NCBI GenBank assembly: GCA_041530395.1
Contig: CP136945.1
Span: 806,001-870,000, forward strand
Source: Thermosynechococcaceae cyanobacterium Okahandja
GTDB lineage: Bacteria > Cyanobacteriota > Cyanobacteriia > Thermosynechococcales > Thermosynechococcaceae
DNA length: 64,000 bases
Direction of reading: 5' to 3'
The notes under the pieces were generated by a model. The model saw nothing but the letters and a program-made list of their open reading frames with translations, had not been told where the DNA came from and searched no databases. Positions 2,105 to 37,193 of this stretch are shown here, in pieces. Numbering within the stretch: the stretch's first letter is position 1; each line of letters begins with the position of its first letter. Position numbers and translations under genes: made by a program.

Positions 2105-3108
<1,004 letters not shown>

Positions 3109-3250
3109 CTATTGATCCTGCCACAGAAGCGATCGCCCCCTAGGGGCTGCCCCACCAATAATTTACAGTTACTTAATAAATAGACGAATTACTTCATTAA
3201 GTTCTGTATTTATGCCTCACCTCGGCTATCTTCCCCATTGGCAAGGTTCT

Positions 3251-4120
3251 ATGACGCGTCGTTCCCCTCTCCCACCGTGGCTCCGCAAACCCCTAGGCAA
3301 AGCCAGTGAGCTATCCACCGTGCAGCAGCTTATTCGGCAGCACGGCATTCACACCATTTGTGAAGAGGGGCGCTGCCCCAACCGCGGTGAGTGCTACGCC
3401 CACAAAACAGCCACTTTTTTACTGTTGGGGGCAACCTGCACCCGTGCTTGCGCCTTTTGTCAAGTGGATAAGGGTCATGCCCCCATGACTGTGGATCTGG
3501 ACGAACCGGCAAAAGTGGCGGCAGCCGTAGCCACCCTTGGGTTGGACTACGTTGTGCTCACCAGTGTGGCACGGGATGACTTGCCGGATCAGGGAGCCGG
3601 ACAGTTTGTGGCCACCATACAAGCCATTCGCCACGTTCGCCCCCAGACGCAAATTGAAGTCCTTACCCCGGACTTTCGGATGGATCGGGGGCGGCTGAGC
3701 CAGCGAGACTGCATTGCCCAAATTGTTGCCCTCGAACCCGCCTGTTATAACCACAACCTCGAAACCGTGGAGCGGCTGCAAGGACCGGTACGGCGGGGTG
3801 CCACCTACGCCAGTTCATTGCAGGTACTGGCAACCGTTAAAGACCTCAATCCCCAGATTCCCACCAAATCCGGCCTCATGCTGGGTCTCGGAGAAAGCGA
3901 AGCGGAAATTATTGCCACCCTCAAGGATTTACGAGCCGTCGGGTGCGATCGCCTCACGTTGGGGCAGTACCTTGCCCCGTCCCTTGCTCACCATCCCGTC
4001 GTTAAATACTGGACCCCAGCAGAGTTTAGCCGCCTCGGTGAAATTGCTAAAGCACTGGGGTTCTCTCATGTACGCTCAGGCCCATTGGTGCGCAGTTCCT
4101 ACCATGCCGCGGTGCCGTAG
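3251..4120 (+). CDS. lipA: lipoyl synthase
   Basis: This radical SAM enzyme inserts two sulfurs into octanoyl groups on the lipoyl domains of 2-oxoacid dehydrogenases and the glycine cleavage H protein. From ATG 3251 the product is 289 residues. The auxiliary cluster cysteines are Cys37, Cys42 and Cys48 ([12 protein letters not shown]). The radical SAM CxxxCxxC cluster is Cys63, Cys67 and Cys70 (CTRACAFC). The C-terminal RSSY motif is present (VRSSYHAA). An ATG at 3212 gives 13 extra residues that do not look like the family; the internal start fits better. The gene converges on psbA, with the psbA terminator in between. Cyanobacteria often have more than one lipA, so this may be one of two. 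Confidence 0.94.
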
Positions 4121-24481: not shown

Positions 24482-24912
24482 ATGGATAGCGACAGGGCGC
24501 AAGCTCTCCCACCGGATTGACTTTGAATATACTCTTTGACAGTCTCTAGCGGCGCGCCTCCACAAGAAATGATGCACTTAGAATCATGCCAGCGTTTTGC
24601 TTTTCCCCAATAGACTTTATCGATTTCTTCCTTGAACTGTTGCCTGAGAATTCGACTAGATGTGGATTTGAGTGACGCTATCAGATCAGAAATATTATTA
24701 TCTGGGTGTAAATCAATTAGGAGATGAACATGATCCGGTTCACCATTAAACTCGACTAGAGAACTTTGATTTGCAGACAACACCCGTTCCAGAACCGGTT
24801 TCATCGCTTCAAGCATGGGTTGGGTCAGCACTTCACGCCTGTATTTTGTAACAAATACGATATGCAAGTGAATCCTGAAAACAACGTGAGAACCTTTTCT
24901 AAGCTGAGTCAT
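24469..24912 (-). CDS. tnpA: IS200/IS605 Y1 transposase TnpA
   Basis: A 147-residue HUH-type single-strand transposase. The HUH metal-binding pair is visible in PDHVHLLIDLH at about 60-70. The catalytic tyrosine is in the final helix (GGAPLETVKEYIQSQ). The N-terminal RIHLHIVFVTKYRREVL matches the family. Length is full, with no frameshift, so it may be active. It is transcribed away from tnpB; the 63-base gap must hold both promoters. Confidence 0.92.
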   Translation of the reverse strand: MTQLRKGSHVVFRIHLHIVFVTKYRREVLTQPMLEAMKPVLERVLSANQSSLVEFNGEPDHVHLLIDLHPDNNISDLIASLKSTSSRILRQQFKEEIDKVYWGKAKRWHDSKCIISCGGAPLETVKEYIQSQSGGRACALSLSIPTV

Positions 24913-24975
24913 ATGGATTTCTAGTCAGTCCCAAAAAATGTGCTATACTCATTACTAAATTGAGGAAATTATCTT

Positions 24976-26331
24976 GTGGTAACGAGAAGACAGACATTTC
25001 GACTGTATCCAAACAAGGCGCAAGAAAAAGCCTTGTTTGCGGCACGTCGTTTGCACTGTTATCTCTACAATGCTTGTATCTCGCATCGTCAATTCGAGTA
25101 TAAGCGCCATCGCAAGTTGATTAGCTACTTTGACCAGCAAAATCTCCTACCCGCGTTCAAGGCGGAATGGGAAGAATTTGCAATGCTGCACTCGCAAGCA
25201 CTGCAATCAACAGTGAAACGAGTTGATTTGGCATACCAGTCATTCTTCAAGGGATTGCACGGTAAGCCGAAATTCAAATCGATTCGCAATTACTCAGGAT
25301 GGGGGTATCCTGCAAAGTCTGGATGGAAAGTTGACAGCACTGGCAAGCATGGAACGGTGAAGCTGAATGATTTGGGTATCACCGTCAAGATGCGCGGAAA
25401 GGCAAAACATTGGGGGACTCCAACGACCCTCACCATTGTTTACAAGCCGTCTAAGCGCCAGTGGTTTGCATCCTTCACTGTTGAGGTTGCCACCCCCGCA
25501 CCGAAGTTTGGCTCTGAGTCTGAACTGTCGTATCAGTCGATTGTGGCCTATGACTTGGGGACTGAAACGGCTCTGACGTGGTTTGATGGGTCTAACTTTG
25601 AGGAAATCGAAAATCCTCGTTTCACCCATAAAAATGAAGAGCAAGTTCGCAAAGTTGCCAAACAAAAACGACGGAAACGCGCCCCAAAGAAAGGGGTCAA
25701 GGCTTCCCGTCGTTGGCGGAAAATCAACAAACGGGAATCTAATCTAAAAGCTAAGGTTGCACGTCAGCGTAGAGACTGGCAACACAAAGTCACTTCAGAG
25801 ATTGCACGTCGTTATGACATCGGAGTGACTGAAAAGCTGAATACGAAAGGGATGACCCGTGCTGCAAAGAAAGGAAGCAAGCGGAGGAAGCAAAAGGCAG
25901 GACTCAACAAATCGATTCTCTCGGTCGGTTTTGGGATTCTCAACAGGATGATCTCGTACAAGATCGAGCAGAAAGGGGGGTTGGTGCTGCAGCTTCCAAC
26001 ACGGGAAATCAAACCATCGCAGCGTTGTCCTAAGTGTGGAGCAATTCACAAAGAATGGGCTGAACTTGGGAATCGTTACCACGTTTGTTCTGACTGTGGT
26101 TTTGAGGTTTCCAGAGACAAGGGAGCTGCGATGGTGATGTACAACGTTGCAACGAATCAGCAACTGGGGGTTGGAACGACCCTCGTTAGTCTTGGATGTC
26201 TTAGCTCTACTTCAGAGACTCGTAAGCATACGGGTTCGATGAAGCAACTAGGGCAGAAGAAGAGACGGAAATCCTCTGCTACGGTGGAATCTGGGGTCTT
26301 AGAAACCCCATCTGCCTGTGCGGTGGGGTAG
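24976..26331 (+). CDS. tnpB: TnpB, RNA-guided nuclease of IS605 element
   Basis: TnpB is the IS605-encoded RuvC nuclease, ancestor-type of Cas12, guided by a right-end-derived RNA. The 451-residue protein has an N-terminal helical domain (TFRLYPNKAQEKALFAARRL). The RuvC acidic residues are in IVAYDLGTETALTW (Asp), IGVTEKLNTKGM (Glu) and SRDKGAAMVM (Asp). A zinc ribbon lies between CPKCG and CSDCG. The motifs differ from the second TnpB in this window (AYDLGTE against GIDVGLT). The last 50 or so residues are an extension encoded across the right-end region, with the stop directly after the hairpin. Start GTG 24976 follows GAGGA at 24962-24966. Confidence 0.9.
   Translation: MVTRRQTFRLYPNKAQEKALFAARRLHCYLYNACISHRQFEYKRHRKLISYFDQQNLLPAFKAEWEEFAMLHSQALQSTVKRVDLAYQSFFKGLHGKPKFKSIRNYSGWGYPAKSGWKVDSTGKHGTVKLNDLGITVKMRGKAKHWGTPTTLTIVYKPSKRQWFASFTVEVATPAPKFGSESELSYQSIVAYDLGTETALTWFDGSNFEEIENPRFTHKNEEQVRKVAKQKRRKRAPKKGVKASRRWRKINKRESNLKAKVARQRRDWQHKVTSEIARRYDIGVTEKLNTKGMTRAAKKGSKRRKQKAGLNKSILSVGFGILNRMISYKIEQKGGLVLQLPTREIKPSQRCPKCGAIHKEWAELGNRYHVCSDCGFEVSRDKGAAMVMYNVATNQQLGVGTTLVSLGCLSSTSETRKHTGSMKQLGQKKRRKSSATVESGVLETPSACAVG
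26306..26328. repeat. right-end hairpin of IS605-type element
   Basis: CCCCATCTGCCTGTGCGGTGGGG mirrors the left-end hairpin. It lies inside the last codons of tnpB and is followed by TAGTTCAT. The region just upstream is where a guide (omega) RNA scaffold is expected for TnpB; this is inference from the family. Confidence 0.72.
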
Positions 26332-32347: not shown

Positions 32348-34483
32348 TTAGGCTCTTTGGCTTTCCCTGAGCAGTTGATCCACCTGTTCTACGGTCAACG
32401 GTGGCGAAAAATAATACCCTTGGCCATAATCGCACCCCAATTCCCGCAGGCGCACCAGTTGATAGGGTCGCTCAATCCCTTCCGCAATCAGCTCTAGCCC
32501 CAGTCCCTGCGCCAAACTCAGGATGGCATCAATCACCGAGTGCTGCTGGCTTTCGGCAGTAATTAACTTTACAAACGAGCGATCTACCTTGAGAATGTCG
32601 ATGGGTAACTGGGTCAGATAACTCAGCGACGAGTACCCCGTCCCAAAATCATCCATACTGAGTTTGATCCCCTGAGCCTTGAGGGCACAGAGAATTTCCC
32701 GCACCTGCTCGGGTTGATCAATGCCAACGCTTTCGGTCATTTCAAGGTGCAAGGAGGAGGGGGGGACTTGGGTTTGCTCAAGGGCAGCCAATACCTGCTC
32801 CACCAGTGCCGGATGGGTTAGTTGGCGATTCGACAAATTCACATGCACACAGGGGGCGTGCTGCGGGTAGCGCTCTTGCCAACGCTGCAAATCGCGACAG
32901 GCTCGCCAAATGACCCAATCGCCAATCGGTAAAATTAAGTTTGTTTCTTCGGCTAAGGCAATAAACCGCTCGGGACTGAGCAACCCTTCCGTGGGATGCT
33001 GCCAGCGAATCAGTGCTTCAAAGCCGTACAGACGATTGTCCCTCAGACGATAAATGGGCTGATAGTAGAGGGTAAATTCATCCCGCTCAATGGCCTGCCG
33101 CAGCCCCACTTCTAACGACAGGCGATCGCGGGCTATGAGGTGCATTTCTTCACTAAAAATTTGATAGCGACTGCCCCCCGCCAGTTTGGCGCGATACATA
33201 GCAATGTCGGCATTACGGAGGTAATCTTCAGCCTTTTCAAGGTGGGGGGTACGGGTGGCCACGCCAATACTCACCTGCAGGATAATCTGCTGCTCTTTGA
33301 CCGTAAAAGGAGTGTCTAATTCTTGGCGAATGCGATCGCACACCCCCAAGGCATCCTCATTGCTGGTAATGTCATCGAGCAAAATCACAAACTCATCGCC
33401 GCCAATGCGAGCCACCGTATCATCCGGACGCACAATCCGCTGAAGTCGCTGCCCCAATTCAATTAAAATCGTATCGCCGCAACTGTGCCCCAAGCTGTCG
33501 TTAATCACCTTAAAGCGGTCAATGTCAATAAACAAAATGGCAAATTTGTAGTCAGGACGGCGACGACCATGGCGAGCAGCCTGCTCAATCCGGTCAAACA
33601 GCAGGGTGCGGTTCGCTAACCCCGTTAACGAATCGTGGAGGGCATCGTGCAGTAACTGCGCCTCTGCCAAGCGATGTTCGGTTAAATCCGTTAATGAGCC
33701 GGCAACACGATAGGATTTGCCGTGGGCATCCCGCAACACTAAGCCGCGAGCTAAGACCCAGCGATAGGAGCCATTGCGGTGCTGCATCCGAAACTCTTGG
33801 TGGAAATGGGGCGTTTGACCGCGCACGTGTAAGGTTAAATTGAGCTTGACCCGCTCGGCATCCTGCGGGTGGATGCGCTTCAGCCACTCGTCAATGTGGT
33901 TACCAATTTCGTGGTCTTGGTACCCCAGTAACGTTTTCCAGCGCGAGGAGTAAAAGGTTTCATCGGTCACTAGGTTCCAGTCCCACACGCCATCATTCAT
34001 GCCCCGGGTCAGCAGGGCGTAGCGATCGCTGGTTTCAAGCAATGCCGTTTGGGTAAACTTGGTATCGGTAATGTTGTACCCACAAACCAAGCCTGACCCA
34101 TTAGGAAAACGCACAAACGCCCAGAGCATCTCCACCACTTGACCATCAATCGCGTGGGTGGGGAGCTCCTGCCAGCCCATCGGCGGATGTAGCATCCAGT
34201 AACGAAACTGGCGGCGGGTTTCCGGATCCGGAAAACACTCACTTAAAAAATCGCGGCGGAGCAAATCGCCCGTGTCCCACCCTAAATGGGTTGTCACCTC
34301 TTGGTTCAGGGACAGAATTTGCCCCTCGTTACCGTAAAAGATCATTGCAAGGGGTAACCGCGCACACACTGTCCGCACTAACTCGTAGGGATCCGCCATT
34401 GCAGGGAAATCAAACCCATAACTCTGAAAGTCCATCATGCGCACATCCCGAAAGTTAGGCAAAAAGGGATCATCATTTTTCAT
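32348..34483 (-). CDS. PAS-PAS-GGDEF-EAL cyclic-di-GMP protein
   Basis: The 711-residue cytosolic protein has two PAS domains (about 30-145 and 150-275, the second with a PAC-type ending EFRMQHRNGSYRWVLARGLVL). A GGDEF domain follows (about 280-445) with intact GGDEF in ARIGGDEFVILL and an RPDD I-site five residues before it. The EAL domain (about 455-705) has EALIRW, the metal-binding DDFGTGYSSLSYL and a late KVDRSF. Both catalytic motifs look intact, so it could make or break cyclic di-GMP; which activity dominates cannot be read from sequence. No membrane segments or chromophore-binding GAF domain are seen. Confidence 0.94.
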   Translation of the reverse strand: MKNDDPFLPNFRDVRMMDFQSYGFDFPAMADPYELVRTVCARLPLAMIFYGNEGQILSLNQEVTTHLGWDTGDLLRRDFLSECFPDPETRRQFRYWMLHPPMGWQELPTHAIDGQVVEMLWAFVRFPNGSGLVCGYNITDTKFTQTALLETSDRYALLTRGMNDGVWDWNLVTDETFYSSRWKTLLGYQDHEIGNHIDEWLKRIHPQDAERVKLNLTLHVRGQTPHFHQEFRMQHRNGSYRWVLARGLVLRDAHGKSYRVAGSLTDLTEHRLAEAQLLHDALHDSLTGLANRTLLFDRIEQAARHGRRRPDYKFAILFIDIDRFKVINDSLGHSCGDTILIELGQRLQRIVRPDDTVARIGGDEFVILLDDITSNEDALGVCDRIRQELDTPFTVKEQQIILQVSIGVATRTPHLEKAEDYLRNADIAMYRAKLAGGSRYQIFSEEMHLIARDRLSLEVGLRQAIERDEFTLYYQPIYRLRDNRLYGFEALIRWQHPTEGLLSPERFIALAEETNLILPIGDWVIWRACRDLQRWQERYPQHAPCVHVNLSNRQLTHPALVEQVLAALEQTQVPPSSLHLEMTESVGIDQPEQVREILCALKAQGIKLSMDDFGTGYSSLSYLTQLPIDILKVDRSFVKLITAESQQHSVIDAILSLAQGLGLELIAEGIERPYQLVRLRELGCDYGQGYYFSPPLTVEQVDQLLRESQRA

Positions 34484-34549
34484 AGCGCGATCTGTAGCTC
34501 AATTTTAGATTGTTTTCCAACGAGAAAAAAGCTTAACTAATGAGGGGTT

Positions 34550-34595
34550 CGGGGAGCAATAAGTCCCGCGCTGGTCGGGATACATGGACTCCCCG
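34550..34595. repeat. left-end nested hairpin of tnpB-only IS
   Basis: CGGGGAG at 34550-34556 pairs with CTCCCCG at 34589-34595. Inside, TCCC and GGGA form a second short stem. This is the expected place for the left-end recognition structure, 13 bases inside the TTAAC flank. Confidence 0.6.
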
Positions 34596-34681
34596 CGCTT
34601 GTCGATTTGGCTCGATGCCAATGAGACAAGCACCCTAGATTTTTGCTACCATAAGCTTATCGCTATTCAAAAGTGCCGATA

Positions 34682-35875
34682 ATGTACAAAGCCTACAAGT
34701 TCCGAATCTACCCCACACCAGAACAAGAGGTTTTATTGGCGAAATCTTTTGGGTGTGCTAGGTGGTTTTGGAACTATGCACTCAATCTCTGCCAAGAGAC
34801 TTATCGGGCAACAGGAAAAGGGTTGTCAAGAGGGTACATTCAGGGTTTATTGCCAGCTCTCAAGAAAGAGCATGAATGGCTAAAAGAGGTATATTCCCAG
34901 TGCTTGCAGGCAGTCGCCCTGAATTTATCAACCGCCTACAAAAACTTCTTTGAAAAACGGGCAAAGTTGCCACGATTCAAATCAAAAAAAGGTAGGCAGT
35001 CTATCAGTTACCCTCAAAACGTCAAACTAGAAGGGGACACCATCTATCTTCCTAAAATTGGACGAGTTGCTTGCCGTCGCCACCGTGATTTTGAGGGAAA
35101 GATAAAAACCGTTACAATATCACGTAATCCTGATGGCAGGTATTTTGCATCAATTTTGGTAGATGATGGACAGCCTATCCCCCAAGCCACAACAGAAGGC
35201 AAAGCCATTGGTATTGACGTGGGATTAACGCATTTCGTGATTACCAGTGACGGTTCTAAGTTTGACAATCCTAAGTTCTTTATCAAACATCAGCGCAACC
35301 TGAAGCGCAAACAGCAAAAGCTATCCAAGAAAAAGAAGGGTAGTCGGAACCGTGAAAAAGCAAGATTGGCAGTGGCGAAAGTCCATTCCAAGATTGCCCG
35401 ATGTCGAGAGGATTTTCTGCACAAGCTATCCCGCAAGATAGTAAACGAAAACCAAGTGATTGTGACAGAGAACCTCAATGTGAAAGGCATGGTCAAGAAT
35501 CACAACCTAGCCAAAGCTATTAGCGATGCGGGTTGGGGTCAGTTGTGTACCATGCTCAAGTACAAGGCAGAGCGTGAAGGCAAAACCTATATCGAGATTG
35601 ATAGATGGTTTCCTAGCTCTAAAACCTGCCATGTATGTCTGAGTCGAGTTGATAACCTCAGTCTTGATGTAAGGACGTGGACTTGCCCGCATTGTGGCAC
35701 GCGCCATGACCGTGATGTCAACGCGGCAATCAACATCAGGAATGAAGGCTTGCGGATATTGTCGTTGGGAACCAGCGATACTGCCTGTGGAGGGAATGTA
35801 AGACGGACTGGTAAAACTTCGGTTTTGCTGGACGCTATTCCCGATGAAGCAGGAAGCCCACGCTCTATCGCATAG
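34682..35875 (+). CDS. tnpB: TnpB, RNA-guided nuclease (second element)
   Basis: The 397-residue protein has the classic TnpB layout: an N-terminal domain (AYKFRIYPTPEQEVLLAKSF), then RuvC residues in IGIDVGLTHFVITSDG (Asp), VIVTENLNVKGM (Glu) and HDRDVNAAINIRNEG (Asp), with a zinc ribbon between CHVC and CPHCG. A basic helix (KRKQQKLSKKKKGSRNREK) precedes the second motif. All catalytic residues are present and the frame is open, so nuclease function may be retained. ATG 34682 is preferred over a GTG three codons upstream. Confidence 0.93.
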   Translation: MYKAYKFRIYPTPEQEVLLAKSFGCARWFWNYALNLCQETYRATGKGLSRGYIQGLLPALKKEHEWLKEVYSQCLQAVALNLSTAYKNFFEKRAKLPRFKSKKGRQSISYPQNVKLEGDTIYLPKIGRVACRRHRDFEGKIKTVTISRNPDGRYFASILVDDGQPIPQATTEGKAIGIDVGLTHFVITSDGSKFDNPKFFIKHQRNLKRKQQKLSKKKKGSRNREKARLAVAKVHSKIARCREDFLHKLSRKIVNENQVIVTENLNVKGMVKNHNLAKAISDAGWGQLCTMLKYKAEREGKTYIEIDRWFPSSKTCHVCLSRVDNLSLDVRTWTCPHCGTRHDRDVNAAINIRNEGLRILSLGTSDTACGGNVRRTGKTSVLLDAIPDEAGSPRSIA

Positions 35876-35889
35876 CGATGAGCGTTGGG
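35857..35889. repeat. right-end hairpin of tnpB-only IS
   Basis: CCCA-CGCTC-ATCGC pairs with GCGAT-GAGCG-TGGG with one or two bulges, giving a 13- to 14-pair stem. It spans the tnpB stop codon (35873-35875) and is followed by TAGTTCAC. It would also form the scaffold end of a TnpB guide RNA. Confidence 0.7.
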
Positions 35890-36173
35890 TAGTTCACTCC
35901 CAAAAGCCAAAAAATCTGGGCTGTAATTTTTGCCTGCTGAGGAGCACCAAGGCGATCGCTATGCTGATGAAGTAGCACTAACGTCTCTAGCTGCTGACGA
36001 ATGGTGGCATTCTCCTCCTCGTCGGGGTAGAGACTGTCTAGAACAGCGTCTAAATCTGCCTCCCCATTGGCCACTAAGCCCGCCCCCGGACAAATCACAG
36101 AGGTTAGGTTCTGCTCATGCTGCCGCAGCAATCGCCGTAGATAGTAGGTTATTGAGACCCCTAACTTTGTCAT
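35865..36173 (-). CDS. small gene truncated and re-terminated by IS insertion
   Basis: The reading frame begins at ATG 36173 and encodes 102 residues. Residues 1 to about 92 are native: an N-terminal basic helix (YYLRRLLRQHEQ), an acidic middle (DLDAVLDSLYPDEEENATIR) and a helical end (LVLLHQHSDRLGAPQQAKITAQIFWLLG). From about 35897 leftwards the codons come from the IS right end, adding VNYPTLIAMR and a new stop. I do not recognise the family; it is soluble and helical. The native end may be recoverable on the far side of the IS. Confidence 0.6.
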   Translation of the reverse strand: MTKLGVSITYYLRRLLRQHEQNLTSVICPGAGLVANGEADLDAVLDSLYPDEEENATIRQQLETLVLLHQHSDRLGAPQQAKITAQIFWLLGVNYPTLIAMR

Positions 36174-36788: not shown

Positions 36789-37193
36789 ATGCAACGTTTT
36801 GGCCGCTGGCTAGCACTGGTTTATCTGCTTGGGGTTAGCCTTCTTGGCTGGATGCACTGGGGCGCGCCCGCGTTCGCTGCCACCGCACCTGCTACAGAAG
36901 AGTTGGTCAATGTGGTGGACGAAAAACTGGGCAGTGCTTACGGTGAAAAAATTGACCTCAACAATACGAATATTGCGGCATTTATTCAATACCGTGGTCT
37001 GTATCCTACGTTAGCCAAGCTGATTGTTAAAAATGCCCCCTACGCGTCGGTGGAGGATGTGTTGAATATCCCCGGCCTGACGGAGCGGCAAAAGGAAATT
37101 CTGCGGGCAAATTTGGATAAATTTACGGTAACGGAGGTGGAAACTGCCCTTGTTGAGGGGGGCGATCGCTATAATAATGGGCTATACAAGTAA
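36789..37193 (+). CDS. psbU: photosystem II 12 kDa extrinsic protein
   Basis: PsbU binds the lumenal side of cyanobacterial photosystem II and stabilises the oxygen-evolving complex. The 134-residue precursor has a Sec-type signal peptide ending in APAFA (about residue 30). The mature part carries a double helix-hairpin-helix fold ([37 protein letters not shown]). The C-terminal Tyr/Lys end (GLYK) is typical. GGGAGG precedes the ATG. It lies 53 bases upstream of nadB. Confidence 0.97.

What the first reader, a model, noticed from the sequence alone, without database searches (positions are those of the whole stretch)
34500..36173. In-silico excision of the tnpB-only IS restores the end of the broken small gene
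Seen: the minus-strand gene starting at 36173 runs through the IS right border and stops inside the IS. Joining its native part (to 35898) with the sequence left of TTAAC at 34537 gives a frame ending VKLFSRWKTI and a TAA near 34505. If the border is one base different, it gives an immediate stop (GG then TAA). Either way the original stop lay at or just beyond the insertion site. This also supports TTAAC as the insertion target.
Basis: partly seen in the sequence, partly recalled or inferred. Interest (0 to 1): 0.5.

Follow-up and report, generated by a model that had tools for sequence, protein, structure and literature searches.

The report
Mobile element swaps a gene's tail

Summary
The element is an IS200/IS605-type, TnpB-only insertion at 34538-35897 behind TTAAC (34533-34537). 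But the restored ending is not the genus ending. In seven Thermosynechococcus genomes the orthologue lies upstream of the same GGDEF-EAL gene and its end reads LKY...S(V/M)(T/S)(A/G)*. A possible remnant of that tail (VGKQS, 34521-34507) lies in the left flank in another frame (2 of 1000 shuffles as good). The gap to the GGDEF gene is 54 nt here against 165-187 nt in those seven. 'Broken' is too strong: 92 native codons stay, one 10-residue tail replaces another (VNYPTLIAMR), and length stays 102 aa. The gene may be dispensable: one of the seven carries an unrelated DDE-type IS in it, and in another genome it was not found at this place. The joint sequence was not found in this assembly. Ordinary insertion-sequence biology.

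The parts
34538..35897 (+). TnpB-only IS200/IS605-type element, 1360 bp
   Evidence: Second copy at G000:2209794-2211186 with different flanks; 17 mismatches and 27 gap columns against it; ends fixed by related copies
34533..34537 (+). TTAAC target / predicted TAM, present once
   Evidence: Same pentamer in front of 15 of 16 left ends read
34682..35875 (+). tnpB (397 aa), open frame, with OrfB_IS605, Cas12f1-like_TNB and HTH_OrfB_IS605 domains
   Evidence: Pfam and NCBIfam IS200_TnpB above cut-off; motifs GIDVG, TENL, two CxxC, RDVNAA located
34538..34640 (+). left end with subterminal hairpins
   Evidence: single-strand DNA fold z -4.38 against 200 shuffles, window 34533-34640
35800..35897 (+). 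right end with hairpin, ends GTTCAC; expected 3' part of the guide RNA scaffold
   Evidence: single-strand DNA fold z -3.70; guide-RNA role inferred from ISDra2
35898..35917 (+). right flank = predicted TnpB guide (TCCCAAAAGCCAAAAAATCT), inside the small gene
   Evidence: inferred from ISDra2 TnpB (PMC8612924 passages); with up to 3 mismatches the joint sequence (20 bases) matches in the own genome only at the IS right junction
35898..36173 (-). native part of the small gene, codons 1-92
   Evidence: about 54-62% identical orthologues in the genus
35865..35897 (-). IS-derived tail VNYPTLIAMR (35897-35868) and stop TAG
34505..34537 (-). tail and stop given by the excision joint: VKLFSRWKTI, TAA
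   Evidence: not matched by orthologues
34507..34521 (-). possible remnant of the orthologous tail (VGKQS), in another frame than the joint's reading
   Evidence: 2 of 1000 shuffles and 7 of 1320 window stretches score as well; DNA-level test weaker (150 of 3000); position checked
34490..34499 (-). promoter-like box AGCTACAGAT, at the place of AAGCTAGGAT (AAGCTAGAAT in G009) in the 8 relatives
   Evidence: fraction 0.0034 of 5000 shuffles, 5 of 4922 window positions as good; relatives
32348..34483 (-). PAS-GGDEF-EAL gene downstream of the small gene
   Evidence: Pfam; found in 9 of 11 genomes of the genus, this one included

Best explanation
A 1360-bp TnpB-only element of the IS200/IS605 kind inserted on the + strand 3' of a TTAAC inside codons 93-94 of a small minus-strand gene, with no target duplication. 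Exact removal gives the donor joint TTAAC|TCCCAAAAGCC and a 102-aa reading ending VKLFSRWKTI*. That is the state just before insertion if nothing changed in the flank afterwards, but it is a lineage-specific ending. The genus ending (LKY...SVTA*) is not restored; its possible remnant lies in another frame, and the stretch to the GGDEF-EAL gene is 111-133 nt shorter than in seven relatives. The insertion exchanges one 10-residue tail for another and probably leaves the folded part of the protein intact. Shown: borders, frames, orthologues, spacing. Inferred: single-strand transposition by a TnpA acting in trans, TnpB guided by the right flank, the order of the indels and the insertion, retained protein function.
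For: Borders from 16 left ends and 10 right ends. Frames. Orthologues next to the same GGDEF-EAL gene. A scan of 11 genus genomes with the 20-base joint sequence, up to 3 mismatches, gave 6 matches: two are the orthologous uninterrupted positions in G002 and G006 (TTTAATCCCAAAATCCAAAA), one is the IS right junction in G000, three lie elsewhere. Spacing 54 nt against 165-187 nt in 7 of 7. VGKQS remnant. Model of the IS-fused protein: helices 6-18, 41-48, 52-70, 77-90, pLDDT under 50 only at 99-102.
Against: No other strain of the species and no reads were available, so the empty site itself was never seen. The nearest genus member by GGDEF protein (G003, 83%) has no small gene here. The remnant is short and was found after looking; the DNA-level test is marginal (150 of 3000 shuffles as good), and an earlier local alignment of the flank to 8 relatives' spacers gave nothing consistent. 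The tail could simply have diverged. In one search the reversed control pattern also gave 2 matches, so single matches there mean little apart from their place. The Y of the IS-derived VNY matches the orthologues' invariant Y, so by that one residue the IS-derived tail fits better than the excised one.
Confidence: 0.8

Rival explanations
1. One reading: VKLFSRWKTI* (or an immediate stop) is the gene's original end, and excision restores the gene.
For: The frame is open across the exact joint and keeps G-V-K, like G-L-K in orthologues.
Against: Seven genus genomes share a different tail and a stop 16 codons after the conserved G, followed by a longer spacer. The possible tail remnant is in another frame. 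Immediate-stop borders contradict ten right ends.
Confidence: 0.3
2. The missing spacer and the changed tail were caused by the element itself (aberrant insertion, or imprecise repair after TnpB cut the empty site).
For: The length change lies within about 55 bp of the insertion; TnpB cuts the donor joint in ISDra2 (PMC8612924, passages).
Against: Both element ends and the single TTAAC are intact. If VGKQS is a real remnant, the spacer loss lies about 30 bp or more away from the element, not at its edge. The two element copies differ by 17 mismatches and 27 gap columns, while the gene is saturated at synonymous sites against its six intact relatives, so more time for such change lay before the insertion than after.
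Confidence: 0.12
3. The IS-derived tail has been kept because it serves the protein (G-V-N-Y resembles G-L-K-Y): a small domestication.
For: Length unchanged at 102 aa; no frameshift or stop in 92 native codons; Y matches the invariant Y of orthologues.
Against: V-N-Y-P is simply what the right end GTGAACTACCC encodes in this frame; the insertion looks young; no expression or selection data.
Confidence: 0.05

Closest known systems
ISDra2 (Deinococcus radiodurans, IS200/IS605 family)
   Same: Insertion 3' of a fixed pentamer with no target duplication, palindromic subterminal ends, a TnpB nuclease whose guide comes from the right end plus flank in ISDra2 (PMC8612924 and PMC2806898, passages seen)
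   Different: Pentamer TTAAC instead of TTGAT; no tnpA inside the element; the guide RNA and cleavage were not tested here
IS1341-type TnpB-only elements (label recalled, not from a call)
   Same: tnpB alone between IS605-like ends
   Different: Not compared with ISfinder entries, which were not available
Small helical protein family next to GGDEF-EAL genes in Thermosynechococcus
   Same: The interrupted gene belongs to it; a relative is the front part of a response regulator-PAS protein (L015)
   Different: No Pfam or NCBIfam match at E 0.1 and no PDB fold match at E 0.001

Membership tests
IS200/IS605 family (TnpB-only) | TnpB of the IS200/IS605 type | tested here: met
   NF038281 IS200_TnpB 437.7 bits against cut-off 425; OrfB_IS605, Cas12f1-like_TNB and HTH_OrfB_IS605 above cut-off
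IS200/IS605 family (TnpB-only) | Fixed short target 5' of the left end, no target duplication | tested here: met
   TTAAC before 15 of 16 left ends read; not repeated directly after the right end in the window and copy 2
IS200/IS605 family (TnpB-only) | Subterminal hairpins at both ends | tested here: met
   DNA fold z -4.38 (left) and -3.70 (right) on the + strand; the minus strand folds too (z -5.14, -3.37)
IS200/IS605 family (TnpB-only) | Y1 (HUH) TnpA supplied by the element or in trans | tested here: inconclusive
   None in the element's own interval; 12 Y1_Tnp matches elsewhere in the genome (11 over cut-off, several of them fragments), none shown to act on these ends
IS200/IS605 family (TnpB-only) | Guide RNA from right end plus flank, TAM equals target | not testable with these tools
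   Needs RNA or cleavage data; at gathering score Rfam gave only one tRNA in the window

The most novel reading that the evidence does not exclude
The element's right end, read in this frame, supplies a working replacement tail (V-N-Y in place of L-K-Y), so that a TnpB element can sit at gene ends at little cost to the host while its guide points at the same gene's empty allele.
Probability: 0.06. Interest if true: 0.45.

Novelty: new member of a known kind. Interest (0 to 1): 0.2.

Why it matters
It settles where one TnpB element begins and ends and which sequence its guide would read. It also shows a limit of in-silico excision: an open frame across the joint is not proof of the ancestral gene end, because the flank can change by itself. 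Comparison with orthologues was needed to see that.

Tried and rejected
Search for a named close relative: the first genome-contig scan found nothing; the second found two Thermosynechococcus MAG contigs and no conspecific (the tool warns that records of the window's own genome or one very near it may be left out). Local alignment of the 54-nt left flank to the relatives' spacers gave no consistent significant match (8 relatives, shuffle fractions 0.026 to 0.738). I first read this as a deletion flush with the IS and dropped that reading after the tail-remnant test; the DNA-level version of that test was marginal. Sister elements as a check of exact excision gave little: for L039 (383 bp), 4 of the 6 homologous stretches (own genome and G005, G007, G008) align from residue 13-15 across the joint at residue 20, two (G005, G001) start beyond it, so support is weak; for L043 the protein searched did not cross the joint, so says nothing on it. 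The joined flanks of the second copy were only read in a script, not searched. The Foldseek PDB search for the small protein had no match at E <= 0.001. Five paper searches were run. Two aimed at this element: TnpB + IS605 + Thermosynechococcus, 0 papers; IS605/TTAAC/cyanobacteria/insertion sequence with at least 3 of 4 terms, 53 papers, of which the 20 listed show no TTAAC. Three were general. Only passages of two papers were read.

Full report
Setting. The window is bases 806001-870000 of a 2.8-Mb genome with one contig. Thermosynechococcus MAG contigs carry the closest named copies of the small gene (L111 and L112; L111's contig has the same length, 32286, as G009:C94), and psbU lies at 36789. 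The element lies between a PAS-GGDEF-EAL gene (34483-32348, minus) and the bulk of a small minus-strand gene that starts at 36173.

What was claimed and what is there. The ORF 36173-35865 has 102 codons before its stop and ends inside the element. Joining its native part to the sequence ending at 34537 gives VKLFSRWKTI and TAA at 34507-34505. With one base more on the right flank the reading stops at once; with one base fewer there is a third, longer reading; with two fewer it stops at once again.

Where the element ends. A second copy elsewhere in the genome shares everything from TTAAC to TTCACT, so it cannot place the last base. More distant right ends can. Ten right ends of this type were read; all end TTCAC or TTTAC and are followed by T, T, A, T, A, G, T, C, C, G (window, copy 2, L033, L049, L050, L041, L046, L138, L139, L140). 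Of 16 left ends read, 15 follow TTAAC and one TCAAC. Twelve of the 14 left-end loci have another right end, GATGTCAC. Hence the element is 34538-35897, and only the VKLFSRWKTI joint is exact. Left and right ends fold as single strands much better than shuffles (z -4.38 and -3.70). TnpB is a full open frame with IS200/IS605-type models above cut-off. No transposase match lies in the element; 12 Y1 transposase matches (11 over cut-off) and 37 TnpB TNB-domain matches (35 over cut-off, the element's own included) lie in the genome.

The uninterrupted gene. Of 11 genomes of the genus, this one included, 9 match the GGDEF-EAL gene stretch. In six (G002, G004, G005, G006, G008, G009) the small gene lies intact directly upstream. 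In G001 it is interrupted by a DDE-transposase element with a 9-bp duplication CTTCTCTCT. In G003 no small gene was found in the 7 kb fetched around the GGDEF-EAL gene. G007 has the gene at a contig end. G010's only match is of the paralogue type by its sequence. Eight of eight read G-L-K-Y at the site; the seven whose end can be read continue to a tail ending S[VM][TS][AG], stop 16 codons after the G. After excision this genome reads G-V-K-L-F-S-R-W-K-T-I; with the IS it reads G-V-N-Y-P-T-L-I-A-M-R. The scan of the 11 genomes with the 20-base joint sequence, up to 3 mismatches, gave 6 matches: the orthologous position in G002 and in G006, the right junction in this genome (1 mismatch), and three places elsewhere in G003, G008 and G010; the reversed-pattern control gave 2 matches. 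So no empty copy was found in this assembly.

Does excision restore the native end? Only partly. From codon 92 to the GGDEF start there are 54 nt here once the IS is taken out, against 178, 177, 165, 187, 166, 183 and 182 nt in G001, G002, G004, G005, G006, G008 and G009. The left flank has no consistent significant DNA match to the relatives' spacers, except that a promoter-like box AGCTACAGAT stands at the place of their AAGCTAGGAT (fraction 0.0034 of 5000 shuffles; 5 of 4922 window positions as good). A test of the three frames of the flank beyond the target against the seven tails found VGKQS at the right register of the tail, in a frame other than the joint's (2 of 1000 shuffles and 7 of 1320 real stretches as good; DNA-level sum, 150 of 3000 shuffles as good). 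I take it as a probable, not proven, remnant of the genus tail, which supports that the left flank is the gene's other half and that in this lineage the tail has been shifted out of frame and the spacer shortened. Whether that happened before or after the insertion cannot be told. The two element copies differ by 17 mismatches and 27 gap columns, while the gene is saturated at synonymous sites against all six intact relatives (pS 0.74-0.85, pN 0.25-0.29), so more time lay before than after.

Is the gene broken? The insertion keeps codons 1-92 and replaces a 10-residue tail by a 10-residue tail. The model of the protein as it now stands (18 sequences, mean pLDDT 85.9) has its last long helix at 77-90 and falls under pLDDT 50 only at 99-102. 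The ends beyond G-L-K are the variable part of the family alignment. So loss of function is not shown. The gene is interrupted in G001 and was not found at this place in G003, which suggests that it can be spared.

Mechanism. By analogy with ISDra2 (passages of PMC8612924 and PMC2806898) the element most likely moved as a single strand with a TnpA made elsewhere, and its TnpB would use the flank from 35898 as guide and TTAAC as TAM, cutting the empty joint. None of this was tested here.

Verdict. A correct observation with a partly correct reading; ordinary IS biology with one useful caution about in-silico excision.

Noticed in passing
G000 whole genome; loci L034-L048: Sixteen elements read share this left end (15 after TTAAC), including eight copies of 305-523 bp without a full tnpB (L037-L043, L048) that end in GATGTCAC or, for L041, GTTTAC: likely non-autonomous relatives.
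   Followed up: partly
window about 24517-26136 (G000:830517-832136): A Y1 transposase match (minus) and a TnpB match (plus) lie close together inside the window: a probable complete IS605-type element.
   Followed up: no
L060, about 2352-3458 (G001): Independent insertion of a DDE-transposase IS with a 9-bp target duplication in the orthologue of the same small gene.
   Followed up: partly
L015, L016, L021, L022: The small domain also occurs at the front of longer open frames in other cyanobacteria; in L015 it is followed by a response regulator and a PAS domain (the other three were not scanned). It may be an unnamed signalling domain.
   Followed up: partly
G000:358583-358864: A paralogue of the small gene (51% identical) elsewhere in the genome; several genus members also have a second, similar match.
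   Followed up: no
G000:2209794-2211186: The second copy of the element lies among Uma2-like genes (label recalled, not searched); its left end is 27 bases longer through a partly repeated stretch.
   Followed up: no
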